IMG/VR virus record: IMGVR_UViG_3300017771_000145
Span: 1-20,980 of that record
Origin: a virus
Length of the DNA stretch: 20,980 bases
Strand: one strand, 5' to 3'
This document shows, piece by piece, positions 1 to 20,531 of this stretch; position 1 is the first letter of the stretch, and the number at the start of each line of letters is the position of its first letter. The notes below the pieces were generated by a model. The model had not been told where the DNA came from, searched no databases, and saw only the letters and a program-made list of their open reading frames with translations. A program made the position numbers and the translations under genes.

Positions 1-90
1 AGAAAAAAGAGCAAATTGCCAACGGTCAATATAGCTTTTCGTATCTGGGCTTAGTTCTTTTTTTGCGTTCATTATTTCTCTATCGCTCAT
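1..90 (-). CDS. Small early protein, N-terminal part (cut by window edge)
   Basis: This leftward reading frame begins with an ATG at position 90 and runs off the window start, leaving about 30 residues (begins MSDREIMNAKKELSPDTK). The start is supported by a 4-base ATGA overlap with the stop codon of the upstream leftward gene, which implies translational coupling and a shared transcript from the motif at 449-487. I do not recognise the family, and no domain can be called from this fragment. It is the last visible member of the small leftward gene array. Confidence 0.55.
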   Translation of the reverse strand, partial: MSDREIMNAKKELSPDTKSYIDRWQFALFS

Positions 91-437
91 ATTATTTTAG
101 TGTCTGCTTCGTGTAGTACATGCTCCATTTCTTCCCAGGCTACCATGTCAGGACTATCTGTAAGATAATCGTAAAGACAAGCGTAAGCTGCTTGCGCAAT
201 GTTATCAGGTCGGCCCCACAAGTCGTGCTCGTTGTAATGATACTCTGAATTGTTTTCGAGTATAGCTTCGCAATCACTCGTGTAGATAACTGCGTTGTCA
301 ATCCACTCGTGAAAGTAATCGTAGAAGTCATCTTGATTGTTTATATCACCGTTGTGAAATGCATGCCATGCATCTTCGCTGAATGATTGGTCTTGTTCGT
401 TTAGCTTTGTGTTTTGTAATGCTCTATATAATTCCAT
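87..437 (-). CDS. Strongly acidic small early protein, unknown function
   Basis: This is a 116-residue protein that I do not recognise. It is strikingly acidic: I count 26 Asp/Glu against 4 Lys/Arg, a net charge near -22, and it is also rich in aromatic residues and His. It has no signal peptide or membrane segment. Charge and size resemble phage proteins that mimic DNA or bind host nucleic-acid enzymes, but no specific family motif is visible, so that is only a hypothesis. The ATG at 437 lies about 11 bases downstream of the conserved motif at 449-487. Its stop overlaps the start of the next leftward gene by 4 bases, so the two are probably coupled. Confidence 0.75.
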   Translation of the reverse strand: MELYRALQNTKLNEQDQSFSEDAWHAFHNGDINNQDDFYDYFHEWIDNAVIYTSDCEAILENNSEYHYNEHDLWGRPDNIAQAAYACLYDYLTDSPDMVAWEEMEHVLHEADTKII

Positions 438-448
438 ATTGTTTTATT

Positions 449-487
449 TTATATTATTATCCAGTTGTTATCGTGTTTATCTTGTAG
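449..487 (-). promoter_or_regulatory. Early-array motif copy 1 (putative phage promoter)
   Basis: One of five copies of a spaced motif found upstream of leftward small genes. Read leftward it has CTACAAG, then CACGA, then GGATAATAATATAA. Compared with copies 3 to 5 it has three extra bases (TTA) in the A/T core, an insertion shared with copy 2. It ends about 11 bases before the ATG at 437, so a transcript starting just downstream would have almost no leader. It does not fit the Bacteroidota -33/-7 promoter pattern well, and promoter function is inferred. Confidence 0.6.
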
Positions 488-490
488 AAA

Positions 491-793
491 TTAGTGCATT
501 TTATTTGCTCTTATGTATTCACCTAGCTTTTTTTGTGCGTCGTATATATCAATTCGATTTGTTTCTTGATACTCAACGATTTCGTATGCACGTTTTAGAT
601 TGTCACAATAAACAATTGTTGTTTCAGGACTGTAGTGTGCTTTGAAAAACACAGTGACGCCGGGCATTGTTTCATCGTGTGAGTACATTTGCTTTTTACC
701 TTTGTATATTTTGTAAAGCCATTGTCCGTTGAAACTTCGGTCGTATGATGGGTAAGTACCGTTTGCTACGTCTTTTAGTATTGCGTTTATCAT
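491..793 (-). CDS. Small early protein, unknown function
   Basis: This 100-residue protein is not recognised. It has a mixed charge and a predicted alpha/beta character, with an aromatic-rich stretch (GQWLYKIYKGKK, residues about 23-34) and a helical C-terminus (DAQKKLGEYIRANK). No membrane segment or catalytic motif is seen. The ATG at 793 lies about 12 bases downstream of motif copy 2 (806-844), and motif copy 1 lies just beyond its stop, so it is probably a single-gene transcription unit in the early array. Confidence 0.75.
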   Translation of the reverse strand: MINAILKDVANGTYPSYDRSFNGQWLYKIYKGKKQMYSHDETMPGVTVFFKAHYSPETTIVYCDNLKRAYEIVEYQETNRIDIYDAQKKLGEYIRANKMH

Positions 794-805
794 AGTTTTA
801 TTATT

Positions 806-844
806 TTATATTATTATCCGATTGTGGTCGTATTTGTTTTGTAG
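806..844 (-). promoter_or_regulatory. Early-array motif copy 2 (putative phage promoter)
   Basis: Second copy of the spaced motif, reading leftward CTACAAA, then TACGA, then GGATAATAATATAA. It shares the three-base core extension with copy 1. It ends about 12 bases before the ATG of the 100-residue gene at 793. Position and conserved internal spacing support a regulatory role, most simply a promoter. Confidence 0.6.
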
Positions 845-858
845 TTTGTGTATAGCAA

Positions 859-1089
859 TTATAGAATATCTTGTTTGATTCTTGGTAGAGAATTAGCACT
901 CCATCTATTACCTTTTGAGTATACACGCCGTGTACGGCTTTTAACTTTACCTGTTTGTAGTTTTATAGACTCATTGAATTCTGCTTGCGTAAAGCCTTGT
1001 ATTGTGCCGTATCCTAGCACTTTACGGTATTCGTTTGCTCTTTCTTTTTTCTTTTGTGCATTGTATGCAAGTAGTTCTTTCATTGTCAT
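859..1089 (-). CDS. Small basic early protein, unknown function
   Basis: This protein of about 76 residues is rich in Lys and Arg, with a basic helix near the N-terminus (AQKKKERANEYRKVLGYG) and a basic C-terminal half (GKVKSRTRRVYSKGNRW). Nucleic-acid binding is plausible but unproven, and I do not recognise a family. I take the ATG at 1089. An in-frame TTG at 1095 would add two residues, and an ATG at 1083 would remove two. Motif copy 3 lies about 22 bases upstream and motif copy 2 lies past its stop, so it is probably its own unit in the early array. Confidence 0.7.
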   Translation of the reverse strand: MTMKELLAYNAQKKKERANEYRKVLGYGTIQGFTQAEFNESIKLQTGKVKSRTRRVYSKGNRWSANSLPRIKQDIL

Positions 1090-1111
1090 AATCAATATCT
1101 TTATAGTTACA

Positions 1112-1148
1112 TTTATATTATCCGATTAAGCTCGTGTTTTGTTTGTAT
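1112..1148 (-). promoter_or_regulatory. Early-array motif copy 3 (putative phage promoter)
   Basis: Third copy, reading leftward with a TACAAAC-like element, CACGAG, and GGATAATATAA followed by ATGTAA. It is about 22 bases upstream of the basic-protein start at 1089 and overlaps the stop region of the upstream gene (which ends at 1150). The internal spacing matches the other four copies exactly apart from the TTA insertion in copies 1 and 2. Confidence 0.6.
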
Positions 1149-1149
1149 T

Positions 1150-1350
1150 CTAGCAATGTCCTAAGCCTAAGTACTCAATTTCAATCCACTCTTGCACAAT
1201 GTTGAGGTCTTTTTGTACTTCAATTGCTTGTAGCAATCTATCATTATCCATTAGGAATTCTTTATCTTGGAATAACTTGTCTCTTAGTTGAGTTAGTGTT
1301 ACTCCGTTCATTAGTTCTTGATTTAATCTTTTTTCTCTTAATATTCTCAT
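1150..1350 (-). CDS. Small helical early protein, unknown function
   Basis: A 66-residue protein, probably all helical, with charged helices such as MRILREKRLNQEL and a heptad-like stretch DRLLQAIEVQKDLNIVQEWI that could form a coiled coil. It is not recognised. It starts 27 bases after the stop of the next gene upstream (1378-1596) with no motif copy between them, so both probably share the transcript started at motif copy 4 (1859-1895). It ends in a Cys two residues after a Gly. No metal-binding pattern is seen. Confidence 0.7.
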   Translation of the reverse strand: MRILREKRLNQELMNGVTLTQLRDKLFQDKEFLMDNDRLLQAIEVQKDLNIVQEWIEIEYLGLGHC

Positions 1351-1377
1351 AATTTTATATTTTTTAAGGTTAATAAT

Positions 1378-1596
1378 TTATTTTTCTTGGTAGTTTTGGT
1401 ATAAGTCGTTTAAGTACTCTTCATCATTTACTTCAGTCTCATTTAGTTCATGGGCCTCGAAAAATAATTCCACTTTAGTTAGTTCGTTGTTTACTAGTTC
1501 ACTTATTTTTTCATTTGATAAATAGTCGTAGTTTTGAATATAGTCGGTAAACAATTCTTCTCTTAAGTCTTCAAGGTAATTTTTCATATTTTTCAT
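1378..1596 (-). CDS. Small acidic early protein, unknown function
   Basis: A 72-residue protein that is acidic and helix-rich (LEDLREELFTDYIQNYDYL near the N-terminus, an E/D/N-rich C-terminus). It is not recognised. I take the ATG at 1596; a second in-frame ATG three codons later (1587) is an equally good start. No Shine-Dalgarno sequence is present. It is the middle gene of a probable three-gene unit (1692-1838, 1378-1596, 1150-1350) under motif copy 4. Like the 116-residue neighbour it is markedly acidic, but it is too short to argue function from charge. Confidence 0.7.
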   Translation of the reverse strand: MKNMKNYLEDLREELFTDYIQNYDYLSNEKISELVNNELTKVELFFEAHELNETEVNDEEYLNDLYQNYQEK

Positions 1597-1640
1597 ATCT
1601 AAGGGGTATAAGTTGTTTATTAGTTATTTTTAGTTAGGTG

Positions 1641-1662
1641 GTATAGTTCGCTAGTTCTATAC
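1641..1662. repeat. Short perfect inverted repeat between early genes
   Basis: GTATAG at 1641-1646 is the exact reverse complement of CTATAC at 1657-1662, separated by 10 bases, in the 95-base gap between two leftward genes. Rightward it is followed by GCTTTTT. The stem is only 6 bp and A/T rich, so a strong terminator is unlikely. An operator or RNA processing hairpin is possible, and chance cannot be excluded. Confidence 0.3.
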
Positions 1663-1691
1663 GCTTTTTAAGTTATTTTGCTTAATATTTC

Positions 1692-1838
1692 TTAGCATTC
1701 TTCTACTTTTAGTATATTATCTAAGCCAAAATGTAGTATTACGTTTTCAATATTATCGCTTTTCATGTACTTGATCCAATTAGTTGGTATTCCTCTTTTA
1801 TTCCAAGTTTGCACTTTAGTTACTTTAAACATTTTCAT
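1692..1838 (-). CDS. 48-residue early protein, unknown function
   Basis: A short open frame read directly from the sequence. It begins MKMFKVTKVQTWNKRGIP at the ATG at 1838 and stops with TAA at 1692-1694. It is basic at the N-terminus, with the pattern TWNKRGIPTNWIKYM followed by a short hydrophobic segment (NVILHFGL). It resembles a small beta-hairpin or helix-turn-helix fragment, but I do not recognise a family. Motif copy 4 lies 20 bases upstream of the start, and two more leftward genes follow without another motif, which supports it as the first gene of a three-gene unit. Confidence 0.6.
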   Translation of the reverse strand: MKMFKVTKVQTWNKRGIPTNWIKYMKSDNIENVILHFGLDNILKVEEC

Positions 1839-1858
1839 ATTTTACTTATTTAATTACA

Positions 1859-1895
1859 CTTATATTATCCAATTCGTTTCGTATTAACTTTGTAG
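1859..1895 (-). promoter_or_regulatory. Early-array motif copy 4 (putative phage promoter)
   Basis: Fourth copy, reading leftward CTACAAA, then ATACGA, then GGATAATATAA. It lies 20 bases upstream of the 48-residue gene. Its upstream end overlaps the last codons and stop (1884-1886) of the 58-residue gene, so the motif is kept even where it must share bases with coding sequence. That argues for selection on the motif. Confidence 0.6.
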
Positions 1896-2060
1896 TTTAA
1901 GTAATTCTTTTTCACAAATCTTAATCTCTTCATTTATTTTATTAGATAAGTTTTCTTTATTTTCATTCATAGATTTTATAAACCTCTTTTCCATTTCTCT
2001 TTTTCTTTGATTATAAAATTTAATTTTTTGATTGTTAGTAAAGTTAGTTGGAAATCTCAT
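1884..2060 (-). CDS. 58-residue Lys/Glu-rich early protein, unknown function
   Basis: A short open frame read from the sequence, beginning MRFPTNFTNNQKIKFYNQRK at the ATG at 2060 and ending at a TAA at 1884-1886. It is rich in Lys, Glu and Asn, and from about residue 11 onward it is probably one long helix (KREMEKRFIKSMNENKENL), possibly a coiled coil. It is not recognised. It is the first gene of the leftward array, with motif copy 5 about 32 bases upstream. Its 3' end overlaps motif copy 4, which serves the next gene. Confidence 0.6.
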   Translation of the reverse strand: MRFPTNFTNNQKIKFYNQRKREMEKRFIKSMNENKENLSNKINEEIKICEKELLKLQS

Positions 2061-2092
2061 TTTTTATAGTTTTAAGTTATATTGTTTTTACA

Positions 2093-2130
2093 TTTATATT
2101 ATCCATTTTAGTCCGTATTTGCATTGTAAT
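2093..2130 (-). promoter_or_regulatory. Early-array motif copy 5 (putative phage promoter)
   Basis: Fifth and outermost copy, reading leftward TTACAAT, then ATACGG, then GGATAATATAAATG. It is the entry point of the leftward array in the divergent intergenic region, about 32 bases upstream of the first small gene. The element order and spacing match the other copies. Confidence 0.6.
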
Positions 2131-2401
2131 TTTTTAAAATAAAAAGCTAAAAACTTTATATAGTGTTGTAACTTGTTGGTACCCATGGGGTTATAAAAAG
2201 GGTTTTAGTTAAGTGGCTGGTTGTCAGGTAGTTACGTGTAATACAAAACCTCTATATATCTCATTACAGTTTTATGTGACAAATACCCCATATATATACA
2301 TAATAGTAGGCTAACGTCATATGCTCCCGTAAATAAACAAGTATATGCGCGATAAATAACTTATGTACATGTATAATAAGATTAATCTTTAACAAAAAAT
2401 T
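2131..2401. other. Divergent intergenic region between early and late arms
   Basis: No credible gene, tRNA or terminator was found between the leftmost-reading motif and the first rightward gene. The region is A/T rich with a few G/C islands (around 2180-2200, with ACCC and GGGGT flanking an AT centre). Close to the rightward start lie overlapping short palindromes (ATGTACAT and TACATGTA within 2363-2373, AAGATTAATCTT at 2378-2389). It is the natural place for a late promoter, an operator or a replication signal. None of these can be assigned with confidence. Confidence 0.5.
2378..2389. promoter_or_regulatory. 12-bp perfect palindrome before the late block
   Basis: AAGATTAATCTT is a perfect 12-bp palindrome ending 12 bases before the ATG at 2402, next to overlapping 8-bp palindromes (ATGTACAT 2363-2370, TACATGTA 2366-2373) and a TATAATAA stretch. 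Such a cluster could be an operator for a dimeric regulator, or part of the late promoter. In A/T-rich DNA short palindromes arise by chance, so this is weak. Confidence 0.3.
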
Positions 2402-3238
2402 ATGGGATACGGAAAATCAAAACCTGGAATGTTCAAAATGAAACACCAGGGAGTGCCAGCGTTACTAAAAGCATTGACTGGTGGTCAAAAAGAAATGGTT
2501 GGCAAAATGAGGAAGCAAGGGAAAACCTCAGCAGCTGACAAAATTGAAAAAGGTATATTAGCAGAGCCGGCCAAGAAAGCAGCAGTTAAGCTCGATCCAA
2601 CGGACGCCGAGAAGAGAGCCAAAAGTAGTGCAAAACTAAAGCGCGATGCTGAAGGAAGAGTAGTCGGCACCTCAACTGAAACAGGTGGAGACATCCCATT
2701 AGGTACTAAAAAAGGCACTAGAAAAATCGCGGCTAGAACAGGTAAATCTTTTGATGAGGAAGGTAATGTAAAGCTCGGTAAGAATAAAAAGTTTGAAGAC
2801 AACTTATTAACTCTACCTGATGGCACCATTATCGGATACAGAAACACAAAAGGCGAAAGAGTAAACTTTGAAAGCAAAGACAGGGTTAACAAAAGAAAAC
2901 TTAAAAGTGGCTCAAAAGTTGGTGGAAGACTAACAGGTAGGGGATTATCTAACCGTGCATTGGAAAACGCAGCCAGTGATTACTACAAGTATAACACGGC
3001 TATTGATAACGTAAATAGGGCATCAGACAAAGCCAGCAAAGTAGTATCTGCTGAAAAAGAAGGCGATAACGTAAGATACAACGAAAGAAAGAAAAGCGTC
3101 AAAACAGCAGCAGCCCAAAAAGCGAAATCTCCTGTTAAAAAAATGGGTGTTGGTTCAAAGTCCATAAGACAAAGAATAAAAGACGACGCTCAAAAAAAGA
3201 AGAGTGCTCCTGCGACAAAAAAAATGTATAAAAAATAA
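2402..3238 (+). CDS. Lysine-rich basic protein, possible virion or DNA-binding protein
   Basis: This is a 278-residue protein that I do not recognise. Roughly a quarter of its residues are Lys or Arg, with Ala/Lys-rich low-complexity segments at both ends (e.g. AEPAKKAAVKLD, KTAAAQKAKSPVKKMG). The middle (residues about 80-175) is Gly-rich and beta-like and could be the only folded part (KKFEDNLLTLPDGTIIGYRN). There is no signal peptide or membrane segment. It is the first gene of the rightward late block and is followed by another very basic small protein after one base. A DNA-binding internal virion protein is a reasonable guess from charge and position only. The ATG at 2402 is preceded by an A-rich leader and has no Shine-Dalgarno sequence. 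Confidence 0.75.
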   Translation: MGYGKSKPGMFKMKHQGVPALLKALTGGQKEMVGKMRKQGKTSAADKIEKGILAEPAKKAAVKLDPTDAEKRAKSSAKLKRDAEGRVVGTSTETGGDIPLGTKKGTRKIAARTGKSFDEEGNVKLGKNKKFEDNLLTLPDGTIIGYRNTKGERVNFESKDRVNKRKLKSGSKVGGRLTGRGLSNRALENAASDYYKYNTAIDNVNRASDKASKVVSAEKEGDNVRYNERKKSVKTAAAQKAKSPVKKMGVGSKSIRQRIKDDAQKKKSAPATKKMYKK

Positions 3239-3239
3239 G

Positions 3240-3473
3240 ATGGCCTTATCACCAGAAGCGAAGCGCCGTAAAAAGCAGCGAGACCTAGAATACGCTATGA
3301 CCCCTAGACGCCGGCGTATGAAAGCCGAAAACCAACGGAAGCGTCGTGCTGCAAAAAAGAACGGCAAAAATATAGATGGAATGGATTACGATCACACGAC
3401 ACAAAGCTTTGTATCGGCGCGGCGCAATCGCTCTGGATTTAGTAAAGGAACAAAAATAAATAATACAAAATAA
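3240..3473 (+). CDS. Small Arg/Lys-rich phage protein
   Basis: This 77-residue protein starts MALSPEAKRRKKQRDLEYAM. I prefer the ATG at 3240, one base after the preceding stop, over an in-frame upstream start near 3204 that would overlap that gene. Its first half is a very basic helix. The C-terminal half has a conserved-looking pattern, NIDGMDYDHTTQSFV followed by NRSGFSKGTK, which I associate with a small family common in marine phages. The DYDH stretch is reminiscent of HNH-type proteins, but the nuclease core is missing. It probably binds nucleic acid. Its stop overlaps the start of the fibre gene by one base, indicating coupling with the late block. Confidence 0.75.
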   Translation: MALSPEAKRRKKQRDLEYAMTPRRRRMKAENQRKRRAAKKNGKNIDGMDYDHTTQSFVSARRNRSGFSKGTKINNTK

Positions 3474-5596
3474 TGGCAAGAATAGATTCGTACACCGCGA
3501 TAACCCCTACGACGGATGACTATTTACTAGGGACTGACAGCCCATCAGGCGGTGGGCCTACCAGGAATTTTACTGTTCACTCTATAATTGATTTAACATC
3601 TAGTGCATTAGGGAACACCAATGACTACCTCGATGGCATAACAATTGAATCTGGATATGCTGCTGATGCGTCAGATACCGCAACCATAACTTTTTCAGTA
3701 GGGTCGCAAACTGATGCAACTTTAAATCTAGGTGGAGCGGCATTTAAAGCAGCTAGTCACTATGCAACATCGGCTGCATTAACAACACACATAACCGACA
3801 CTACTCAACCGCATAGCCTTGATTCTATTGTTGGCAGTGGAACAATTACCGCAGCAAAATTAAGCGGTAACCCCGGTAATGGTACTAATGGCCAAGTATT
3901 GCTTTCAAATGGTAGCGGTGGATTTTCTTGGGGAAACGATCAAGATGATAACGATAATTACTTTCTATCTAGCGTTACAAAGCCAGCTTCTGATTCTAAC
4001 GATATACTATTTACAATTACAGGTGGTACAAATGTTACTGCCAATGTATTCAACGAAGGGGCCTTCTTGGCTAAAACAGATATAAGAGCTGATATAAAAG
4101 CGAACCATACTTTTATTGCTAGCGATTTTACATTTTTAGGCAGTCTAGCGAGCAAAGATAAGGTAAGTGCGGCTGATATTAATCAAGATGCAATTATCAA
4201 TAGCAAGATCAAGAATAATACAATAGAAGAAAGTAAACTAAAAATTACAAATGATCCTGTTGATGGCTATGTATTAACAGCCGACGGAACAAGCGGATCA
4301 ATGGAATGGGTTGCTAATTCAGCTTCCAACTATTATCTTGACGGCATAACAAGAGGTGGCGCTGATAATAGAACATTAACATTTTCTGTTAATGGTGGTA
4401 CAGATAAAACATACACCTTTGGTGATGGAGCTTTTGCTAATTTTGGAACTACAGCAACAAGCGTTGCTAAAGGGAATCACTCCCATACAATAACCGATAT
4501 TTCTGATAGAGGAGCATTGTCAGAATTGGACACGGTAGGCACAAGCGAAATAGACAATGATGCGGTGACTGCTGCTAAATTGCAGCCAACAACCGTTGGA
4601 ACAAACGGGCAAGTACTTTCTATAAACAGCTCTGGTGATTTACAATGGATAAACTCTTCAGCCCAATCAATCGCTTCGCTCAGGTTATTACCCACTACAA
4701 TAGGTGATGATAATAGTACTGTTACAGGAAAAGGCGGACAAATACTTAGGGTTAACTCAGGAGAAACAGCCGTAGAATATGTAAATCTTTTGGTGCAGAA
4801 AAATGAGTTTGATACATCAAACACCCCATCAGCTGGTAAAATATTAGCAATCGACCAAAACGGGGCTATGCTATGGGCAGATGAAGGAGAGGTAACACTT
4901 TCAGCCAACTCTATAAGCACGGGAATGATACAAGCTAATGCTGTTACTCCTGCTAAAATATCTGTGTTTGAAAACAATATGACCTCAACAACAGCGGGGC
5001 ACATACTTGTTTCAGATGGCACTGTATTCGATAATGTTGCCATGTCTGGCGTAATTGCTATAACGAGTGCCGGGGCTACCAGCTTTAACGCGACAGTTGA
5101 TGGCAATGGTATAACTAATACAAGCGGTGTTTTATCCGCAGATGTAGATAATTCAACAATAGAATTATCTGCCAGTGACGGAACAGGAGAATTAAGAATA
5201 AAAGACAACGCAGTTAGCTATTCTAAATTAGCAGATGAGTTTACGACAAGAGACTCAAACGTAACGCTAGCTAATGGCAGCGCTTCTAAAGATATTGATT
5301 TTGACAGTAAAGCTGTATATGAGGTAACTTTACCTACGGACGGCACAGCAACTACACTTAACTTTGATGGAGCAGATATTGGTATGACAAAAGTTGTATT
5401 AATAAAAACTCAATCATCAGCTTATACTGGTACCTTAACATTTAGTCAAACATCTGGCACGGGAACATTCGTAAGATTATCTTCAGATGATATTGTAAAG
5501 GATGCTAACACAACTAATTATGTACAAATTACTTGTATTAATAAGTCGTCAAACGACTGTACTTATATTTACACAATAGGAATAGCACAAACCTAA
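3473..5596 (+). CDS. Large tail-fibre protein with composite repeats
   Basis: This 707-residue, Ser/Thr/Asn/Gly-rich beta protein is typical of phage tail fibres. The N-terminus (MARIDSYTAITPTTDDYLLG) matches the start of the separate 113-residue protein at 10784, so it is probably a particle-anchoring module. The shaft alternates two repeat types. Type A has a YLDGIT...TFSV..G pattern at residues about 52-91, 163-199 and 288-322. Type B has an A.KL...NGQVL...SG...W pattern at about 125-153, 251-279 and 365-392, with degenerate copies to about 520. The last 120 residues resemble the C-terminal domain of the fibres at 12170 and 14823. It begins cassette one, followed by a Gly-rich adhesin-like protein. 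Fibre role is inferred from composition and modules; the exact receptor is unknown. Confidence 0.85.
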   Translation: MARIDSYTAITPTTDDYLLGTDSPSGGGPTRNFTVHSIIDLTSSALGNTNDYLDGITIESGYAADASDTATITFSVGSQTDATLNLGGAAFKAASHYATSAALTTHITDTTQPHSLDSIVGSGTITAAKLSGNPGNGTNGQVLLSNGSGGFSWGNDQDDNDNYFLSSVTKPASDSNDILFTITGGTNVTANVFNEGAFLAKTDIRADIKANHTFIASDFTFLGSLASKDKVSAADINQDAIINSKIKNNTIEESKLKITNDPVDGYVLTADGTSGSMEWVANSASNYYLDGITRGGADNRTLTFSVNGGTDKTYTFGDGAFANFGTTATSVAKGNHSHTITDISDRGALSELDTVGTSEIDNDAVTAAKLQPTTVGTNGQVLSINSSGDLQWINSSAQSIASLRLLPTTIGDDNSTVTGKGGQILRVNSGETAVEYVNLLVQKNEFDTSNTPSAGKILAIDQNGAMLWADEGEVTLSANSISTGMIQANAVTPAKISVFENNMTSTTAGHILVSDGTVFDNVAMSGVIAITSAGATSFNATVDGNGITNTSGVLSADVDNSTIELSASDGTGELRIKDNAVSYSKLADEFTTRDSNVTLANGSASKDIDFDSKAVYEVTLPTDGTATTLNFDGADIGMTKVVLIKTQSSAYTGTLTFSQTSGTGTFVRLSSDDIVKDANTTNYVQITCINKSSNDCTYIYTIGIAQT

Positions 5597-5601
5597 AATA
5601 C

Positions 5602-6552
5602 ATGTTTATAACTAAAAATATATCAACGCTAGGACAAGTAGCCGCTTACCCCCTAACGGTATCTTACCTGATGATTGGCGGGGGTGGTGGTGCATCCTAT
5701 GGTGGCGGCGGTGGAGCAGGGGGTTATAGAAACTCCTACTCTACGGAATCATCTGGAGGTGGTGGATCAACAGAGACACCTTTAACTATAAATAGTGGAA
5801 ACACACTTTATGCAGAAATTGGTGGTGGTGGTAGTGGATCCTTACGGGGGGCTACTGCTGCTAGCAAAGGGAGCAATACAAGATTAGGCAGTTTATATGC
5901 TTATGGAGGCGGTGCTGGCCCAAGGTCTAGCACAGACGCATCATTAGCTGACGGTGGTTCTGGTGGTGGTGAAGGTTTTACGTCTAGCACATCTGGTGAT
6001 ACATCAGGCACTCATAGAGGAGACGGAACCGCAAATCAAGGATATAGAGGTGGTAATAGTACTGACTGGACTCAAAACAATTTCGGTGGTGGAGAATGGA
6101 TTATGGGCGGTGGCGGTGGTGCTGGCCAAGTCGGTGGAAATGCCGTCTGGAGAAATGATTGTGGTGATGGCGGAGATGGTTTGTCATCCTCAATCACAGG
6201 GGCACCAACCCCAAGAGCTGGCGGTGGCGGTGGTGCTTCATGGGATTCGGGTGCTACGCTAGGATTAGGAGGCGCTGGTGGTGGTGGTGATGCTGTTCGC
6301 GGTGGCACTAGTAATGGTGGTGATGGTACTAATAATACTGGGTCGGGAGGCGGAGCTTCGGGAAGTTCTACACAATCACAAAGCGCAACAGGAACAGGTG
6401 GTGATGGCGGTAGCGGAGTAGTAATATTGAGATTTCCTTCTTCAGGGGTAACACCATCATATGCTGCAGGATTAACTTATTCTGAATCTAGTGACGGTGA
6501 TGATAAAATTGTAATAGTAACGGCAGGGTCAGGCAATATAACATTTAATTAA
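5602..6552 (+). CDS. Glycine-rich tail-fibre or adhesin protein (copy 1)
   Basis: A 316-residue protein dominated by glycine runs (e.g. GGGGGASYGGGGGAGGYR), of the Gly-rich domain type seen in phage receptor-binding tips and tail adhesins. It opens with a short non-Gly segment (about 25 residues, ending TVSYLMIGGGGG) and closes with a conserved non-Gly tail (GVVILRF..., then GLTYSESSDGDDK and a TAG.G.ITF ending). The same head and tail occur in the 304-residue paralogue at 13519, while the Gly-rich centre differs, as expected for a receptor-facing region. It is 5 bases downstream of the large fibre and 2 bases before the next gene, so the three probably function together. Receptor binding is inferred. 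Confidence 0.8.
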   Translation: MFITKNISTLGQVAAYPLTVSYLMIGGGGGASYGGGGGAGGYRNSYSTESSGGGGSTETPLTINSGNTLYAEIGGGGSGSLRGATAASKGSNTRLGSLYAYGGGAGPRSSTDASLADGGSGGGEGFTSSTSGDTSGTHRGDGTANQGYRGGNSTDWTQNNFGGGEWIMGGGGGAGQVGGNAVWRNDCGDGGDGLSSSITGAPTPRAGGGGGASWDSGATLGLGGAGGGGDAVRGGTSNGGDGTNNTGSGGGASGSSTQSQSATGTGGDGGSGVVILRFPSSGVTPSYAAGLTYSESSDGDDKIVIVTAGSGNITFN

Positions 6553-6554
6553 AT

Positions 6555-6926
6555 ATGGCACATTACGCTTTTTTAGATTCTAATAACGTTGTAACAAAAG
6601 TTATAAAAGGCAAAGACGAAACAGACACATCTGAAAATTGGGAAACTTATTATGGTGGTATGCATGGTCTTACATGCAAAAGAACATCATATAATACATA
6701 CGCTAATATACATAAAACCAATGGCACGCCTTTTAGAAAAAATTATGCGGGAATCGGTTATACTTACGATACCGATAAAGATGCATTTATACCGCCAAAA
6801 CCATATAACTCTTGGGTGCTAAACGAAACAACGTGTCAATGGCACGCTCCAAATGATTTACCAGATGATGCGGACACCACTAGATACATATGGAATGAGG
6901 CCACAAAACAATGGATTGCTCAATAA
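6555..6926 (+). CDS. Conserved fibre-cassette protein (copy 1)
   Basis: This 123-residue protein starts MAHYAFLDSNNVVTKVIKGK, a start I recognise from many marine phage proteins of tail-fibre regions. It contains two conserved Cys (residues about 40 and 90), the pattern CKRTSYNT, an FRKNYAGIGYTYD block and a C-terminal run of Trp-centred short repeats (SWVLNETTCQWHAP, RYIWNEATKQW). A paralogue of 127 residues sits in the same relative place in cassette two (14437), and the first 26 coding bases of the two genes are identical. It is probably a minor tail or fibre-associated protein; the biochemical role is unknown. Confidence 0.8.
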   Translation: MAHYAFLDSNNVVTKVIKGKDETDTSENWETYYGGMHGLTCKRTSYNTYANIHKTNGTPFRKNYAGIGYTYDTDKDAFIPPKPYNSWVLNETTCQWHAPNDLPDDADTTRYIWNEATKQWIAQ

Positions 6927-6988
6927 AAAATACCATTTTAATGTAATATAACTATATAACCAAAAATAATTAACCAAAACCTTTTATT
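6927..6988 (+). promoter_or_regulatory. 62-base gap, possible promoter for the chaperonin and lysis block
   Basis: This is the longest gap in the first half of the late block. It contains AATACC followed after 11 bases by ATATAA, loosely echoing the early motif (ACGA-type element and ATATAA core) but with a spacer three bases shorter and without the GGAT core. No hairpin terminator is seen. It could carry an internal promoter for the genes from 6989 onward. Confidence 0.3.
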
Positions 6989-7273
6989 ATGACCTATTTT
7001 TATTACAAGTCGGCAACGACTAACCAACAAACTAAATTAAATGAAGAAACCAAAGCCCTATGGGAAACCTTAGCTTTAAAAGAAAATTGGCGTATTACAC
7101 AATTGCCAAATGGTTTTTATCAAACCGAGTATGAGCTTGACGATCAATGGATTGACGTAACAAGGCGTGAAACTATTGAGGGGGCTGAGCAAGCTATTGA
7201 CTCTTCAGTCAATCATTTTAAAAAAAGACTAAAAGCTTTTGAAGGCCCAACAGTAGTTAAAACATTTAAATAA
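6989..7273 (+). CDS. Small conserved phage protein, unknown function
   Basis: A 94-residue protein with an N-terminal half rich in aromatics and Glu (LKENWRITQLPNGFYQTEYELD) and a helical C-terminal half (VTRRETIEGAEQAIDSSVNH, then GPTVVKTFK). I have the impression of seeing this pattern in other marine phage genomes but cannot name a domain. It has no membrane segment. It sits alone between the first fibre cassette and groEL, 17 bases before groEL, so it may be transcribed with the chaperonin genes. The leader before its ATG is A/T rich without a Shine-Dalgarno sequence. Confidence 0.7.
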   Translation: MTYFYYKSATTNQQTKLNEETKALWETLALKENWRITQLPNGFYQTEYELDDQWIDVTRRETIEGAEQAIDSSVNHFKKRLKAFEGPTVVKTFK

Positions 7274-7290
7274 TCTAATATTTTAATTTA

Positions 7291-8850
7291 ATGGAATTTA
7301 ATCACCCAAGTAATATTGTTAAAGATTTAAACTTTAGCAATAATGCGAGTAGCAAAATTATGGCCGGAGTTAATAAGCTTAACAATGCGGTCAAATCAAC
7401 ATTAGGGGCATCGGGAAAATGCGTTATTTATGAAGATGCATTAGGTAGACCGATCGTTACCAAAGATGGTGTAACTGTAGCAAATAGCGTAATCTTACGG
7501 GACCCGGTAGAAAATATTGGCGCCACCCTTGTAAAAGAAGCCGCCCAAAAAACAGTGAAGGAAGCAGGCGATGGAACTACCACCTCAACAGTCCTTGCTT
7601 CCGCCATCTTAAACGAATATTATCAAAGTGGTAAAACAAATGTTAGAGATATAAAAATTGGTATTGATAAAGCCTTGGCTAAATCATTAAAATACCTTAA
7701 TAAAATAAAAGTTCCAGTTGAAGGATCAATGCTCAACCATGTTGCAAATATTTCTGCCAATAATGATAAATTATTAGCAGGCATTATAGCAAATGCCTAT
7801 GAGCAAGTTGGCAAAGATGGTGTGGTATTAATGGAGGAGTCTGATACAGCAGACACGCACGTTGAAATCGTAGATGGAGTGCAATTTGATTCAGGCTTAA
7901 AATCACCACATCTTATTACTGATAAAGAAAAAGGCAAAGCTGTATTAGAAGACCCTTTAGTGCTTTTAGTCGAATCTGAAGTAAATACAATTAGAAAGAT
8001 TCAGACTGTTTTAGAGTATGCTATAAAAGAAAAACGCAGTATACTTATAATTGGGAACATCGCCCAACAGCCGCTTTCTGCATTAATAATGAATAAGGCA
8101 AAAGGTAATATAAAAGTAAATGTTATTGATTCTCCAGGCTTTTCATTAACCAGAAAAGAACTAATGGAAGATTTAGCTTCTATAACCGGCGCTACTATAA
8201 TTAATGAAGATTTAGGCGATGACCTTGATTTAATCGGAATAGAGCATTTAGGTGTATGCAAAAAAGCCGTTACAGACGACAATAATACTGTTATTACTGT
8301 AGAAAATATTAATGAAAAAATTACTGGTCGTATTGAGTCAATTGAAAAACAATTGAAAGAAGAAAAAAACGATTACGTAATTAAAAAGCTAGAAGAGCGC
8401 AAAGCGATGCTTTCTGGATCTGTTGGAATTATAAAAGTTGGGGCTGATAGCAAAGTAGCACTAAAAGAAAAAAAAGATAGAGTAGAAGACGCTATTTACG
8501 CGGTTAAAGCAGCTTTAAAAGAGGGCATTGTTCCGGGCGGTGGTATTGCATTATGTAATGCAGCTAATAGTATAAAACCTGCTTGCGCAGGTGAAGAAAT
8601 ATTAGTAGCCGCTATGAAACAACCTTTTGAAACCATATTAAGTAATTCTGGTGTTACTGGAGATGTGTATAGCAAAGGTAAGGGAATTGACGTTACGAAC
8701 GGTAAAGTTGTTAATATGATTAAAGCGGGGATAATTGACCCGGTCCTTGTAACAAAAACAGCTTTAAAAAACGCGGCATCTGTTGCCTCCACTATTATAT
8801 CTGCTGATTGTGTAATTTCAAACGTTAGAGAAGATGCAGGCAATCAATAG
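7291..8850 (+). CDS. groEL: Phage-encoded group I chaperonin GroEL
   Basis: A 519-residue GroEL homologue covering equatorial, intermediate and apical domains. The ATP site is intact: TKDG at 57-60 (D59, E. coli D52), GDGTT at 93-97 (D94, E. coli D87), D400 in VEDAIYAVKAALKEG (E. coli D398, needed for hydrolysis), GGG at 416-418, and D483 in GIIDP (E. coli D495). It therefore should be an active ATPase. The usual Gly-Gly-Met C-terminal tail is absent; the protein ends REDAGNQ. In the apical domain several residues known to bind substrate and GroES in E. coli differ: Y199 to L203, Y203 to H207, F204 to L208, L234 to Q238. L237 and L259 are kept, and V263/V264 become I/M. It overlaps groES by 17 bases. 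Given its place among structural genes it probably folds phage proteins. Confidence 0.96.
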   Translation: MEFNHPSNIVKDLNFSNNASSKIMAGVNKLNNAVKSTLGASGKCVIYEDALGRPIVTKDGVTVANSVILRDPVENIGATLVKEAAQKTVKEAGDGTTTSTVLASAILNEYYQSGKTNVRDIKIGIDKALAKSLKYLNKIKVPVEGSMLNHVANISANNDKLLAGIIANAYEQVGKDGVVLMEESDTADTHVEIVDGVQFDSGLKSPHLITDKEKGKAVLEDPLVLLVESEVNTIRKIQTVLEYAIKEKRSILIIGNIAQQPLSALIMNKAKGNIKVNVIDSPGFSLTRKELMEDLASITGATIINEDLGDDLDLIGIEHLGVCKKAVTDDNNTVITVENINEKITGRIESIEKQLKEEKNDYVIKKLEERKAMLSGSVGIIKVGADSKVALKEKKDRVEDAIYAVKAALKEGIVPGGGIALCNAANSIKPACAGEEILVAAMKQPFETILSNSGVTGDVYSKGKGIDVTNGKVVNMIKAGIIDPVLVTKTALKNAASVASTIISADCVISNVREDAGNQ

Positions 8851-9091
8851 ATATATTATAATAGATAGAATAAAAGAAGACCCAGTAAAAACAAACGGGC
8901 TACTTTTAAACGAAAAGCACCAAGACGACGTAAGATATAGAAAAGGAAAAGTTATTTCTATAGGCAATTTAGTTGACGGGCTTAACGAAAAAGCGCTAAT
9001 ATATTATGACAAGCATGCTGGCTATGGAATAGAGTTTGACAACAAATTATATTTTGTTATAAAAGAGTCAGACGTTATTGCTGTGCTATGA
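8834..9091 (+). CDS. groES: Phage-encoded co-chaperonin GroES
   Basis: An 85-residue GroES-like protein, compact compared with E. coli GroES (97 residues). It has the family layout: an N-terminal strand NRYIIIDRI, a mobile loop with the hydrophobic triplet LLL (in NGLLLNEKHQDD) that should contact GroEL, KGKVISIG, then LIYYDKHAGYGIEF and the C-terminal strand VIKESDVIAVL. It would cap the GroEL ring above and change its chamber for folding. The ATG at 8834 lies inside the last codons of groEL in another frame (17-base overlap), so translation is probably coupled. Its stop overlaps the next start by 4 bases (ATGA). Bacterial operons normally place groES first; here the order is reversed. Confidence 0.92.
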   Translation: MQAINRYIIIDRIKEDPVKTNGLLLNEKHQDDVRYRKGKVISIGNLVDGLNEKALIYYDKHAGYGIEFDNKLYFVIKESDVIAVL

Positions 9092-9528
9092 GACTAGAAG
9101 CATCTGATTTAAGAGAAATGAATATATTAAAGTATTACAGGCTTATCAGAAGATGGGCCTGTAAGACTTATGATTTAAAAGATGCTGATTTAGAATTACT
9201 TATATATTTTGATTGCGTAGGATTGTTTACGCGTGATGATTATATTAAGGGCACATATACTTTTTCGTGGGATAAAAAAAGATGGGAAAGACTACGACGA
9301 CAAGGGTGGATTGATGTTTATGCGGAAAGAAACCAAACTACAATAAAATATAATGTGTTTAAAACATCAACAAAATGCAAACACCTTATAACAAGGATTT
9401 ATAAAATAATGCTAGGAGAGGAAGATTTACCAATGTCCGAGCGCAGCGTATTTTTCAAGAATAAATCATATACAGATAAAGTTTACAACAAAGCTATAGA
9501 CGATATGTTTAAAGACACTACAAGATAA
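9088..9528 (+). CDS. Winged-helix-like (MarR-style) protein
   Basis: A 146-residue protein whose pattern suggests a winged helix. There are helices over residues about 1-45 (ADLELLIYFDCVGLFTRDDY), then a helix KKRWERLRRQGWIDVYAERN that looks like recognition helix followed by the wing, then YNVFKTSTKCKHLITRIYKI and a C-terminal tail with GEEDLPMSER. I associate this arrangement with MarR-like proteins of marine phages, but no single residue is diagnostic. Start and stop overlap their neighbours (ATGA with groES, one base with the next gene), so it is co-translated with the chaperonin and lysis genes. It may regulate late genes or serve as a structural DNA-binding protein. Fold inferred, function unknown. 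Confidence 0.65.
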   Translation: MRLEASDLREMNILKYYRLIRRWACKTYDLKDADLELLIYFDCVGLFTRDDYIKGTYTFSWDKKRWERLRRQGWIDVYAERNQTTIKYNVFKTSTKCKHLITRIYKIMLGEEDLPMSERSVFFKNKSYTDKVYNKAIDDMFKDTTR

Positions 9529-9848
9529 TGGCATATAAAATGAAAAACAATATCAAATCATTGGTAATGGATCATGGCCTGGTAACAGAAGAAAATGGGA
9601 TGGGTAAAGTCGAAGGCGTTACCTTAAATGATGGCACTATCGTTGTAAATAAAAATTTGTCTAAAAAGAAAAAAAATATAGCGGTGAGTCATGAAAAAGT
9701 TCATCGCGATCAAATACTCAGAGGCGATTTGTCTTATGATGATGAAAATGTATATTGGAAAGGAAAGAAACACCCAAGAGCTCTTATGAAGGAAGGAGCA
9801 AGTGATCTGCCTTGGGAAAAAGAAGCATATAAAAAACAAAAAAAATAA
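9528..9848 (+). CDS. HExxH mini-protein, putative zinc-metallopeptidase-like
   Basis: A 106-residue protein containing HEKVH (residues 55-59), the zinc-binding HExxH signature, followed by DQILRGDLSYDDENVYWKG and a downstream PWEKEAY in which a Glu (97 or 99) could be the third ligand. The N-terminal part (GKVEGVTLNDGTIVV) is a small beta region. It is much smaller than typical metallopeptidases, so it may be a minimal zincin fold or a pseudo-enzyme. I associate the HEKVH...WKGK...PWEKEAY pattern with small conserved proteins of marine phages. It lies between the winged-helix gene and the lysin, one base overlapping the former. A role in virion maturation or cell-wall passage is possible but unproven. 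Confidence 0.7.
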   Translation: MAYKMKNNIKSLVMDHGLVTEENGMGKVEGVTLNDGTIVVNKNLSKKKKNIAVSHEKVHRDQILRGDLSYDDENVYWKGKKHPRALMKEGASDLPWEKEAYKKQKK

Positions 9849-9850
9849 AT

Positions 9851-10006
9851 ATGGGAATGTCAGGACCGGCAGCAGTGCCAATTACTCAAAAAGTTCATTC
9901 AAAAACTTCTGCAAGCAAACAGGCTATTTGTGAAACTTGTAAAAAACCAATTGGTGCACAATGTAGCTGTTCAAGCGGATATGTACACGTAAGAGGTGGA
10001 AATTAG
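9851..10006 (+). CDS. 51-residue CxxC/CxC zinc-ribbon-like mini-protein
   Basis: A short frame read from the sequence: ATG at 9851, TAG at 10004-10006. The product begins MGMSGPAAVPITQKVHSKTS and contains CETCKKPIGAQCSC, a CxxC...CxC cluster that could bind one zinc, followed by GYVHVRGGN. The spacing is short for a classic zinc ribbon. It starts 2 bases after the HExxH gene and overlaps the endolysin start by 11 bases, so it is part of the same coupled string of genes. The small size and tight fit make it credible despite the length. The function is unknown. Confidence 0.65.
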   Translation: MGMSGPAAVPITQKVHSKTSASKQAICETCKKPIGAQCSCSSGYVHVRGGN

Positions 10007-10463
10007 AATAAGCAAACACATTTCAATCAAAGAGGCCACAAGATCAAATACGGCTGAAAGATTAGGTATTGATAATTTTCCTAACAGCCCTGTGCTCGCT
10101 AATATGCAAGCTTTGGCTGAAAATGTATTTGAGCCCCTTAGGGAGCACTTTGGGCATCCAATATATATAACTAGCTTTTATCGCAGTCCGGAGCTAAATA
10201 AAGCTATCGGGGGCAGCTCTAGGAGTCAGCATTGCAAAGGCCAGGCTATTGACATTGATGATGTTATAGGTAATTCAACAAATGCTAATTTTTTTAATTA
10301 TATAAAAGACAACTTAGAATTTGATCAATTAATATGGGAATTCGGAAATAATGATAGTCCTAACTGGGTGCATGTTAGCTACGATGCTTCTAATAATAGA
10401 GGCAATATCCTAAAAGCTATAAAAGAAAACGGAAAAACAAAATATACTATATGGAACCAATAA
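9996..10463 (+). CDS. Endolysin, M15 family peptidase
   Basis: A 155-residue peptidase of the M15 (D-Ala-D-Ala carboxypeptidase or L-Ala-D-Glu endopeptidase) type, which cuts peptidoglycan cross-bridge peptides to lyse the host. The zinc and catalytic pattern is complete: SxHxxGxAxD at residues 77-86 (S77, H79, D86), a candidate acid E115 in LIWEFG, and WVHVSY with the third ligand H126. Substrate-side SFYRSPELN (60-68) matches the family. No signal peptide is present, so export needs the holin or a similar route. It begins with GTG at 9996 inside the preceding mini-gene (11-base overlap) and ends overlapping the next gene by 13 bases. The putative holin is further downstream at 16689. Confidence 0.9.
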   Translation: MEIRISKHISIKEATRSNTAERLGIDNFPNSPVLANMQALAENVFEPLREHFGHPIYITSFYRSPELNKAIGGSSRSQHCKGQAIDIDDVIGNSTNANFFNYIKDNLEFDQLIWEFGNNDSPNWVHVSYDASNNRGNILKAIKENGKTKYTIWNQ

Positions 10464-10774
10464 CCAAAAGAGTACAACAGGCTCCGCTGATGAAAAAACC
10501 ACCAGCACCATCAAAGAAAAAATCTTTAGGATATTACAATGAGGCCAACCCTACTGGGACAGGTGCCGCCGCAGGCGGTGGAATGACGCCAAAAGGGACC
10601 GCTAAATATAGAGCAGATAATCCAGGTTCTAAATTGAAAACAGCCGTAACAACTCCGCCTAGCAAACTAAAGCCCGGAAGTAAAGCTGCTAAACGTCGTG
10701 AGTCTTTTTGTGCTAGATCTAAAAGCTGGACTTCTGAAAGAGGCAGAGCTGCAAGAAGACGCTGGAATTGTTAA
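10451..10774 (+). CDS. DUF6321-like small basic phage protein
   Basis: A 107-residue basic protein. The N-terminal half is low-complexity, rich in Pro, Lys, Gly and Ala (APSKKKSLGYYNEANPTGTG). The C-terminal part has the pattern KAAKRRESFCARSKSWTSER followed by GRAARRRWNC, with two Cys, which matches what I know as the DUF6321 type found in many marine phages. Function is not established for that family; the basic charge and Cys pair suggest nucleic-acid binding or a virion component. It overlaps the end of the lysin gene by 13 bases and precedes the second fibre cassette. Confidence 0.75.
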   Translation: MEPITKRVQQAPLMKKPPAPSKKKSLGYYNEANPTGTGAAAGGGMTPKGTAKYRADNPGSKLKTAVTTPPSKLKPGSKAAKRRESFCARSKSWTSERGRAARRRWNC

Positions 10775-10783
10775 TACTATATT

Positions 10784-11125
10784 ATGGCTAGAATAAAAAC
10801 ATACGTAAAGGATACTGTAATAACGGACGGAGATAAACTTTTAGGCACAGATGCTGCTAATAATAATAGAACTGTAAATATTGAAATAGGCAATTTAAAA
10901 ACATATATGGAAGATAATGCAGAGTTTAACTCTGATACAACCGTATTTAATCAGTCTTCCGCGTCAACCACATGGTCTATCTCACATAACTTAGCAAAAT
11001 ATCCAAGCGTATATACAGAAGATAGTTCTGGCAATATAATAATAGGTCAAGTAGACTATCAAAACAACGCTTCACTAACTATAACATTTTCAGCTGCTAC
11101 AGCAGGAGTAGCTTATTTAAACTAA
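10784..11125 (+). CDS. Stand-alone fibre N-terminal anchor protein
   Basis: A 113-residue protein starting MARIKTYVKDTVITDGDKLL. Its first 40 residues align in pattern with the N-terminus of the 707-residue fibre at 3473 (MARI..Y......D.LLGTD......N). The second half (SISHNLAKYPSVYTEDSSGN, later LTITFSAATAGVAYLN) is a small beta domain that I recognise as common in phage fibre proteins. It thus looks like the fibre anchor of cassette one, present here as its own gene instead of fused to a shaft. It is followed 6 bases later by the 343-residue fibre, suggesting that the two assemble together. Confidence 0.75.
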   Translation: MARIKTYVKDTVITDGDKLLGTDAANNNRTVNIEIGNLKTYMEDNAEFNSDTTVFNQSSASTTWSISHNLAKYPSVYTEDSSGNIIIGQVDYQNNASLTITFSAATAGVAYLN

Positions 11126-11131
11126 AAAATA

Positions 11132-12163: not shown

Positions 12164-12169
12164 TACATT

Positions 12170-13516: not shown

Positions 13517-13518
13517 TT

Positions 13519-14433: not shown

Positions 14434-14436
14434 ATT

Positions 14437-14820
14437 ATGGCACATTACGCTTTTTTAGATTCAAATAATATAGTAAGGGAGGTTATAACAGGAAAAGAAG
14501 AAACTGACACGTCAGAGAACTGGGAAACGCACTACGGGCAAATAAGAAATTTAACCTGTAAAAGAACAAGCTATAATACTAGAGGAGGGCAACATACAAA
14601 CGGCGGGACACCTTTTAGAAAAAACTATGCAGGTGTGGGGTATAAATATGACAGCGCTAAAGACGCTTTTATCCCCCCTCAACCATATGGCAACTGGACA
14701 TTAAATAATACAACTTGCCTATGGGAGCCTCCGATCGGTTATCCCGCAGATGGAAACGATTACGATTGGAGCGAAGATAACAATCAATGGGTACAAATAA
14801 CGTTACCCCTTAATACATAA
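14437..14820 (+). CDS. Conserved fibre-cassette protein (copy 2)
   Basis: A 127-residue paralogue of the protein at 6555. It shares MAHYAFLDSNN, ETDTSENWET, LTCKRTSYNT, GTPFRKNYAG and the Trp-rich end (NWTLNNTTCLWEPP, YDWSEDNNQWVQ). The first 26 coding bases are identical to those of copy 1, which suggests a relatively recent duplication or ongoing recombination. It keeps the position directly after the Gly-rich adhesin, supporting a functional link with it. The exact role (minor tail protein or assembly factor) is unknown. Confidence 0.8.
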   Translation: MAHYAFLDSNNIVREVITGKEETDTSENWETHYGQIRNLTCKRTSYNTRGGQHTNGGTPFRKNYAGVGYKYDSAKDAFIPPQPYGNWTLNNTTCLWEPPIGYPADGNDYDWSEDNNQWVQITLPLNT

Positions 14821-14822
14821 AT

Positions 14823-15203: not shown

Positions 15204-15207
15204 TAAT

Positions 15208-15675: not shown

Positions 15676-15680
15676 TAGAT

Positions 15681-16670: not shown

Positions 16671-16688
16671 AAATATATTTTTATAATT

Positions 16689-17102: not shown

Positions 17103-17143
17103 TACGTAATAAAGAAATATAACCTTAACTTAAATTTAATAAA

Positions 17144-20530: not shown

Positions 20531-20531
20531 C

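What the first reader, a model, noticed from the sequence alone, without database searches (positions are those of the whole stretch)
449..2130. Five-copy spaced motif in front of the leftward small genes
At 449-487, 806-844, 1112-1148, 1859-1895 and 2093-2130 the same bipartite or tripartite pattern occurs on the minus strand: TACAA, then an ACGA-type element 5 to 8 bases on, then GGATAATATAA (copies 1 and 2 carry a TTA insertion in the last element). Spacing is otherwise identical in all five. Each copy lies 11 to 32 bases before a start codon, and copy 4 overlaps the coding end of the previous gene. It does not fit the Bacteroidota -33/-7 promoter, so it may be a promoter for a phage-encoded RNA polymerase or phage-modified host polymerase, driving early genes as separate units.
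Basis: partly seen in the sequence, partly recalled or inferred. Interest (0 to 1): 0.75.

Follow-up and report, generated by a model that had tools for sequence, protein, structure and literature searches.

The report
Phage-specific promoters of marine flavophages
Five copies of a conserved DNA switch in front of a phage's small early genes belong to a large family of phage-specific promoters that replace the host's promoter code and are most likely read by the host's RNA polymerase carrying a specificity (sigma) factor made by the phage itself.

Summary
Five exact copies of TACAA-N7-ACG[AG]-N8-GGATAAT lie on the minus strand only. Both spacings are fixed; the "TTA insertion" falls just downstream of the -10. 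In 17 related genomes or fragments the same element is almost confined to the early strand (128 of 129 sites, window included). In 80 sigma-bearing loci the count is 218 to 0. It is a promoter with an inferable start site: in 684 sites the downstream ATG peaks sharply 7 nt after GGATAAT (130 sites; 1 at 6 nt, 7 at 8 nt), and elsewhere that base is a purine in 98%. So GATAAT is a -10 hexamer, TACAAACTAAATACGA a -37/-22 box, and about a fifth of these mRNAs are predicted leaderless. The clade has lost the host -7 signal (TAnnTTTG) that sister phages keep. No RNA polymerase gene was recognised, but 30 of 32 motif-bearing contigs encode a sigma70-family factor; 0 of 19 sister contigs do. Best explanation: host core polymerase plus phage sigma reads this element (about 0.6). 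Main rival: reading by an entry-time host factor, because sigma lies downstream of the cluster. Transcription was not measured.

The parts
449..487 (-). Class-1 promoter copy 1: box TACAAGATAAACACGA, -10 GATAAT (456-461), inferred +1 at 449 (A), leader about 12 nt to ATG at 437
   Evidence: Exact match, PWM 32.0; start site inferred from relatives
806..844 (-). Class-1 promoter copy 2, -10 at 813-818, inferred +1 at 806 (A), leader about 13 nt to ATG at 793
   Evidence: Exact match, PWM 38.0
1110..1148 (-). Class-1 promoter copy 3, -10 at 1117-1122, inferred +1 at 1110 (G), leader about 21 nt to ATG at 1089; followed by TGTAACTATA, which resembles the class-2 element
   Evidence: Exact match, PWM 32.9; class-2-like match
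1857..1895 (-). Class-1 promoter copy 4, -10 at 1864-1869, inferred +1 at 1857 (G), leader about 19 nt to ATG at 1838; overlaps the end of gene 1884-2060; probably serves three genes (1692-1838, 1378-1596, 1150-1350)
   Evidence: Exact match, PWM 33.8; ORFs
2091..2129 (-). Class-1 promoter copy 5, -10 at 2098-2103, inferred +1 at 2091 (G), leader about 31 nt to ATG at 2060
   Evidence: Exact match, PWM 34.1
87..2060 (-). Seven small leftward genes (87-437, 491-793, 859-1089, 1150-1350, 1378-1596, 1692-1838, 1884-2060), no PHROG match
2275..2321 (.). Interrupted inverted repeat TGTGACA...AGGCTAACGTCAT between the early and late arms; same element overlaps the start of the HTH-sigma operon in relatives; probable operator
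   Evidence: no significant RNA fold
2402..20978 (+). Late arm: tail-fibre-like genes, GroEL/GroES, endolysin, holin, terminase (18323-20530), portal (from 20532); no class-1 copies

Best explanation
The five copies are phage-specific, sigma70-type promoters. Shown by sequence: a 16-bp box TACAAACTAAATACGA at -37 to -22, a -10 hexamer GATAAT at -12 to -7, and a purine start 7 nt after the -10; about a fifth of the genes are predicted to have leaderless mRNA with the ATG at +1. Inferred: they are read by the host's own core RNA polymerase carrying a sigma70-family factor encoded by the phage. That gene sits downstream of the class-1 cluster in relatives and beyond the cut end of this fragment. 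The phage sigma reads GATAAT through an altered region 2.4 (Gly/Arg in place of the residues that read T at -12 in host sigma). Its region 4, and/or the winged-helix protein encoded next to it, reads the lineage-variable upstream box. This would move early/middle small genes off the host promoter code and onto a phage-controlled one.
For: Strand and position: 128 of 129 sites on the early strand in the window and 17 related genomes or fragments, control 0-1; 218:0 in 80 sigma loci, control 0. Start-site signature outside the matrix used for scanning: ATG spike at +1 and 98% purine at +1. Host code abandoned: TAnnTTTG not enriched in intergenic DNA of the clade (58 vs 62 control, 57 vs 114) but enriched in sigma-less sisters (20 vs 4 and 24 vs 12); none of the six sigma motifs mapped in F. 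psychrophilum fits (PMC9723704). Co-occurrence: sigma in 30 of 32 motif-bearing contigs, in 0 of 19 sister contigs, which also lack the motif above control level. The protein is a sigma factor by Pfam, PHROGs, NCBIfam and fold. At the two positions that read -12 in E. coli sigma70 (Q437, T440; PMC2613000) it has invariant Gly and Arg where a Flavobacteriales SigA has Gln and Leu, which suits a G at -12. In divergent sigma-bearing lineages a different upstream box recurs at the same spacing before GATAAT. No RNAP gene recognised.
Against: No transcription data. The sigma gene lies 1-3 kb or more downstream of the class-1 cluster in most genomes, an order that would also suit promoters active before sigma is made. 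No host-type promoter was found in front of the sigma operon that would start the cascade. A second element, TGTAATTATATATATA, sits directly after the sigma gene (51 of 80 loci) and could be the sigma target instead. Co-occurrence is within one clade, so it may reflect common descent. The window fragment itself lacks the sigma gene because it ends inside the early arm. GATAAT was part of the search pattern, so its invariance is partly by construction, and the 80 sigma loci were fetched with a pattern containing the Arg in question (the 14 were not). Recognition-helix residues of region 4 did not track box variants cleanly.
Confidence: 0.6

Rival explanations
1. True early promoters read at entry by host RNA polymerase with a host sigma (SigA or an alternative sigma), possibly helped by a virion-delivered or host DNA-binding protein at the upstream box; the phage sigma then reads the class-2 element TGTAATTATATATATA for replication and late genes.
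For: Gene order: class-1 cluster, then the sigma operon, then class 2 immediately after the sigma stop codon. Class-2-like elements also precede late genes. Something must be read before sigma exists.
Against: Class 1 does not match SigA (TAnnTTTG) or any mapped flavobacterial sigma motif (PMC9723704). Sister phages of the same host group use TAnnTTTG. In 257 Gb of prokaryote genomes the element occurs in only 5 stretches, at least 3 of them clearly contigs of this phage group. The class-2 element lacks a -12 G and its start-site geometry could not be made out.
Confidence: 0.28
2. Promoters for a phage-encoded RNA polymerase (single-subunit, or a virion-packaged enzyme hidden in the giant structural protein).
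For: Long fixed promoter, one strand, early genes; giant virion proteins of about 2,100-3,800 aa exist in the clade, as in N4-like phages.
Against: No RNAP family hit, no PDB or Pfam RNAP hit for the giant protein profile, no hairpin in the element. A -10 hexamer with A-11 and T-7 and a start 7 nt on is the geometry of sigma-dependent initiation.
Confidence: 0.05
3. Operator or other protein-binding repeat, not itself the core promoter.
For: The long upstream box could be a regulator's site; part of the element varies by lineage.
Against: Fixed geometry to a -10-like hexamer and to the ATG and purine at +1; strictly oriented; not palindromic.
Confidence: 0.05
4. Translational or RNA element in the 5' leader.
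For: Always near start codons.
Against: No RNA structure, no Rfam match, distance to ATG ranges from 5 to more than 50 nt, and GGATAAT is equally kept at all distances.
Confidence: 0.02

Closest known systems
Bacteroidota/flavobacterial SigA promoters (-33 TTTG / -7 TAnnTTTG)
   Same: Sigma70-family geometry, probably the same core enzyme, A-rich leaders without Shine-Dalgarno
   Different: -10 is GATAAT instead of TAnnTTTG, no -33 TTTG, a 16-bp box instead, far more leaderless genes (about 19% vs 5.5% in F. psychrophilum, PMC9723704)
Phage sigma-factor cascades (SPO1 gp28 middle promoters, T4 gp55 late promoters; from general knowledge)
   Same: Phage-encoded sigma-type factor redirecting host core RNAP to a phage-specific promoter class
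   Different: Different sequence and clade; here a -10 with G at -12 plus a long upstream box, in uncultivated phages of presumed Flavobacteriaceae
T4 middle promoters (MotA box plus host -10)
   Same: A phage-specific box in the -35 to -22 region combined with a sigma70-type -10
   Different: No AsiA/MotA homologue sought or found; the phage has its own sigma and a neighbouring winged-helix protein
FliA/sigma28-type promoters (TAAA ... GCCGATAA; from general knowledge)
   Same: -10 begins GATAA; the phage sigma region 2.4 reads RIRGAI as in FliA/SigD
   Different: -35 box and spacing differ; the protein scores far below the FliA/WhiG cut-off (47 vs 189.6 bits)
Marine Flavobacteriaceae phage group 2 of PMC5332604
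   Same: GroEL-bearing environmental phages related to Cellulophaga phages, one noted to carry an RNAP sigma-70 gene
   Different: No promoter motif was described in the passages read

Membership tests
Sigma70-type promoter | -10 hexamer with A at -11 and T at -7 | tested here: met
   GATAAT, A-11 100%, T-7 98-99% in 647 sites; partly by construction of the search
Sigma70-type promoter | Start 6-8 nt after the -10, purine preferred | tested here: met
   ATG spike at 7 nt and 98% purine there; inferred, not measured
Sigma70-type promoter | Initiation by a sigma-bearing multisubunit RNAP | not testable with these tools
   No biochemistry; a phage sigma gene co-occurs
Bacteroidota SigA promoter | -7 box TAnnTTTG with -33 TTTG/TTG | tested here: not met
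   Absent from the copies; not enriched in intergenic DNA of the clade
Sigma54 or ECF promoter | -24/-12 GG/GC or a CGT-type -10 | tested here: not met
   By inspection of the consensus against PMC9723704 SM4/SM6
Single-subunit phage RNAP promoter | Phage encodes a T7/N4-like RNAP | tested here: inconclusive
   PF00940 0 of 25, but no control genome rang; giant protein no RNAP hit
Phage with multisubunit-type RNAP | Beta or beta-prime-like gene | tested here: not met
   PF00562 0 of 25, controls 14 of 14
N4 early promoter | Small hairpin in the promoter | tested here: not met
   No stable hairpin
Phage sigma regulon | Sigma factor encoded by the same phages | tested here: met
   30 of 32 motif-bearing contigs, 0 of 19 sisters; absent from the window because the fragment ends
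Phage sigma regulon | Sigma directs transcription from the motif | not testable with these tools
   Needs in vitro transcription or RNA-seq

The most novel reading that the evidence does not exclude
A large uncultivated phage clade of marine Bacteroidota has left the host promoter code for its own two-part code: an invariant GATAAT -10 read by a phage sigma with a rebuilt region 2.4, and a lineage-variable 16-bp box read by sigma region 4 together with the winged-helix protein encoded beside it. Many early mRNAs are leaderless, and the HTH-sigma operon and the late arm share one operator that times the switch.
Probability: 0.33. Interest if true: 0.75.

Novelty: new variant of a known kind. 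Interest (0 to 1): 0.6.

Why it matters
Phages of marine Bacteroidota are abundant, yet I found no report of a promoter class proper to them in the papers searched here. This gives a promoter consensus with an inferred start site, hundreds of mapped early genes, and a candidate cognate pair (promoter and sigma) that a simple in vitro test can join or separate. It shows a phage clade that swapped promoter code relative to its sisters, and it offers a candidate orthogonal promoter/sigma pair for Bacteroidota. Elements so specific can also be used to assign contigs: they exposed phage contigs wrongly binned in bacterial genomes.

Tried and rejected
Bacteroidota -33/-7: not enriched in the clade. 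Phage RNAP: none recognised. Hairpin or RNA element: no structure, no Rfam match. Motif in isolates MW202828 and elemoA: absent, and these also lack sigma. SD-like role for GGATAAT at 7 nt: rejected because GGATAAT is kept regardless of distance to the ATG, and AGATAAT is about as common in the 7-nt group (21 of 123) as elsewhere (68 of 524). Co-variation of region 4 helix residues with box variants: no clean link. Class-2 element geometry: start site not determinable. The AlphaFold model of sigma had modest confidence (pLDDT 71, pTM 0.45); its fold hits are sigma factors but it was not used to place DNA contacts. A first attempt to read late-gene upstream regions was spoilt by a gap calculation error and redone.

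Full report
What was claimed and whether it is there. All five are there as exact matches to TACAA-N7-ACG-N9-GGATAAT, with no further match in the window up to 3 mismatches and no shuffle reaching five. A weight matrix from relatives scores them 32-38 against -10.4 for the next place. Spacings are constant; the extra triplet in copies 1 and 2 lies downstream of GGATAAT and is common in relatives. Two of the seven genes have no copy of their own.

Where the window comes from. It is a 20,980-bp virus record, a fragment. Its terminase is closest to environmental contigs and then to Flavobacterium elemo phages and Cellulophaga/Tenacibaculum phages. GroEL and GroES genes are present. GroEL-bearing marine phages related to Cellulophaga phages have been described as putative Flavobacteriaceae phages, one with a sigma-70 gene (PMC5332604). 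The host of this contig is therefore probably a marine flavobacterium, but that is not shown.

Genome-wide distribution. In the window and 17 related genomes or fragments a matrix scan gives 129 sites, 128 on the strand of the early arm; two sister phages have none, and the reversed-sequence control gives one in all. In 80 loci around the phage sigma gene it gives 218 sites on one strand, none on the other, none in the control. About 90% of core matches are intergenic (107 of 119 on the early strand).

Why it is a promoter, and where it starts. The scan matrix ends at the last T of GGATAAT. Downstream of it, among 684 distinct sites, the ATG of the following gene has a sharp peak exactly 7 nt on: 130 sites, against 1 at 6 nt and 7 at 8 nt. 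In the sites without an ATG there, that base is G or A in 98% and is mostly preceded by T. Both facts are explained if it is +1, which makes GATAAT the -10 hexamer (-12 to -7) and TACAAACTAAATACGA a box from -37 to -22. About 19% of genes would have leaderless mRNA, against 5.5% in F. psychrophilum (PMC9723704). The sites are related by descent, so the counts are not independent events. In the window the predicted starts are 449, 806, 1110, 1857 and 2091, all purines.

Not the host code. The Flavobacterium housekeeping -7 box TAnnTTTG is not enriched in intergenic DNA of this clade (58 vs 62 control on the early strand, 57 vs 114 on the late strand). It is enriched in the sister phages MW202828 (20 vs 4) and elemoA (24 vs 12). 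None of the six sigma motifs mapped in F. psychrophilum resembles the element (PMC9723704). A scan of 257 Gb of prokaryote genomes for a 20-base form found five stretches. Three are plainly contigs of this phage group binned in bacterial genomes, one more (in a Prochlorococcus single-cell genome) carries a homologue of a clade gene, and one lies at the end of a Flavobacteriales chromosome contig.

Who reads it. No RNA polymerase was recognised: beta-subunit family 0 of 25 with all 14 controls ringing, T7-like family 0 of 25 but without a working control, giant virion protein without RNAP similarity. But a sigma70-family protein of about 250 aa is encoded downstream of the class-1 cluster (Pfam regions 2 and 4, PHROG sigma factor, NCBIfam sigma70 superfamily, fold). 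It is in 30 of 32 motif-bearing contigs of 58 kb or more; G022, one of the two without it, looks like an incomplete contig whose early arm runs off its end. It is in none of 19 sister contigs, which also lack the motif above control level. Aligned to a Flavobacteriales SigA, region 2.4 reads KRIRGAIRRSID where SigA reads WWIRQSILQALA. The two positions equivalent to Q437 and T440 of E. coli sigma70, which read base -12 (PMC2613000), are invariant Gly and Arg in 14 factors collected without using this pattern. An Arg there suits the G at -12 of class 1; this is an inference. In three divergent lineages a different upstream box (CGAATTATAATACGA, TACAAATTAAATACA, ACTCACC-ATTAAATAATTT) recurs within each lineage at the same spacing before GATAAT, as expected if one partner reads a constant -10 and another a drifting box.

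What speaks against sigma reading class 1. The sigma gene follows the class-1 cluster, typically 2-3 kb downstream. No host-type promoter precedes its operon. A second element, TGTAATTATATATATA, follows the sigma stop codon in 51 of 80 loci and resembles elements before late genes. The alternative that class 1 is read at entry by host polymerase and class 2 by phage sigma is therefore alive at about 0.28. Two loci have class 1 directly before sigma, which would be positive autoregulation under the favoured model.

A further switch element. An interrupted inverted repeat TGTGACA(A/T)TAG-C...GGCTA(A/T)TGTCACA overlaps the start of a two-gene operon encoding a conserved winged-helix-like (HTH_11-like, below the family cut-off) protein and sigma in 62 of 76 loci, control 0. 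It also sits at the head of the late arm in many genomes, including the window at 2275-2321. It has no significant RNA fold in the window. It is a good candidate operator for the early-late switch.

Verdict. The promoter reading is strongly supported by in silico start-site evidence; the phage-polymerase reading is not; the phage-sigma reading is favoured but untested by experiment. As a kind, phage sigma-dependent promoters are known; this consensus, its clade-wide replacement of the host code and the high leaderless share make it a new variant.

Noticed in passing
window 2275-2321; G013 (L214-L217) near 54193 and 62884; 62 of 76 sigma loci: Interrupted inverted repeat TGTGACAwTAGsC...GGCTAwTGTCACA at the head of the late arm and overlapping the start codon of the HTH-sigma operon; candidate operator shared by both.
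   Followed up: partly
L266-L345, about 770-820 nt after the sigma start (51 of 80 loci); also before late genes, e.g. window about 6942: Second conserved element TGTAATTATATATATA directly after the sigma gene, before the replication operon; possible second promoter class, start site unclear.
   Followed up: partly
L348 positions 323-355: A near-perfect class-1 promoter close to the end of a 1.39-Mb Flavobacteriales contig, upstream of a 293-aa ORF and parA/parB-like genes; could be phage relic or a host gene switched on by phage sigma.
   Followed up: no
L346 (64-kb contig), L347, L349, L350: Contigs with genes and class-1 promoters of this phage group filed under Prochlorococcus, Aliivibrio, Gammaproteobacteria and Flavobacteriaceae genomes; probably mis-binned or co-captured phage contigs.
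   Followed up: partly
class-1 sites, position -1 onward (140 of 647 sites): About a fifth of class-1 sites continue TGTAA directly at -1/+1, giving ATG-TAA start-stop, a TTACA...TGTAA inverted pair, or an overlap with the class-2 element; meaning unknown.
   Followed up: no
A1 alignment (L214:6025-13758 and relatives): Giant late-arm protein (about 2,070-3,790 aa) with an HExxH motif and an internal HAD-like DFDDTLA...TARP domain; no family match.
   Followed up: partly
window 6555-6926 and 14437-14820; 5602-6552 and 13519-14433: Paralogous gene pairs in the late arm (MAHYAFLDSNN... and glycine-rich tail proteins), suggesting a duplicated tail-fibre cassette.
   Followed up: no
window 8834-9091 and 17501-18094: Two GroES-type genes, one next to GroEL and one in front of the terminase (PHROG co-chaperonin), a pairing also annotated in elemo phages.
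   Followed up: no
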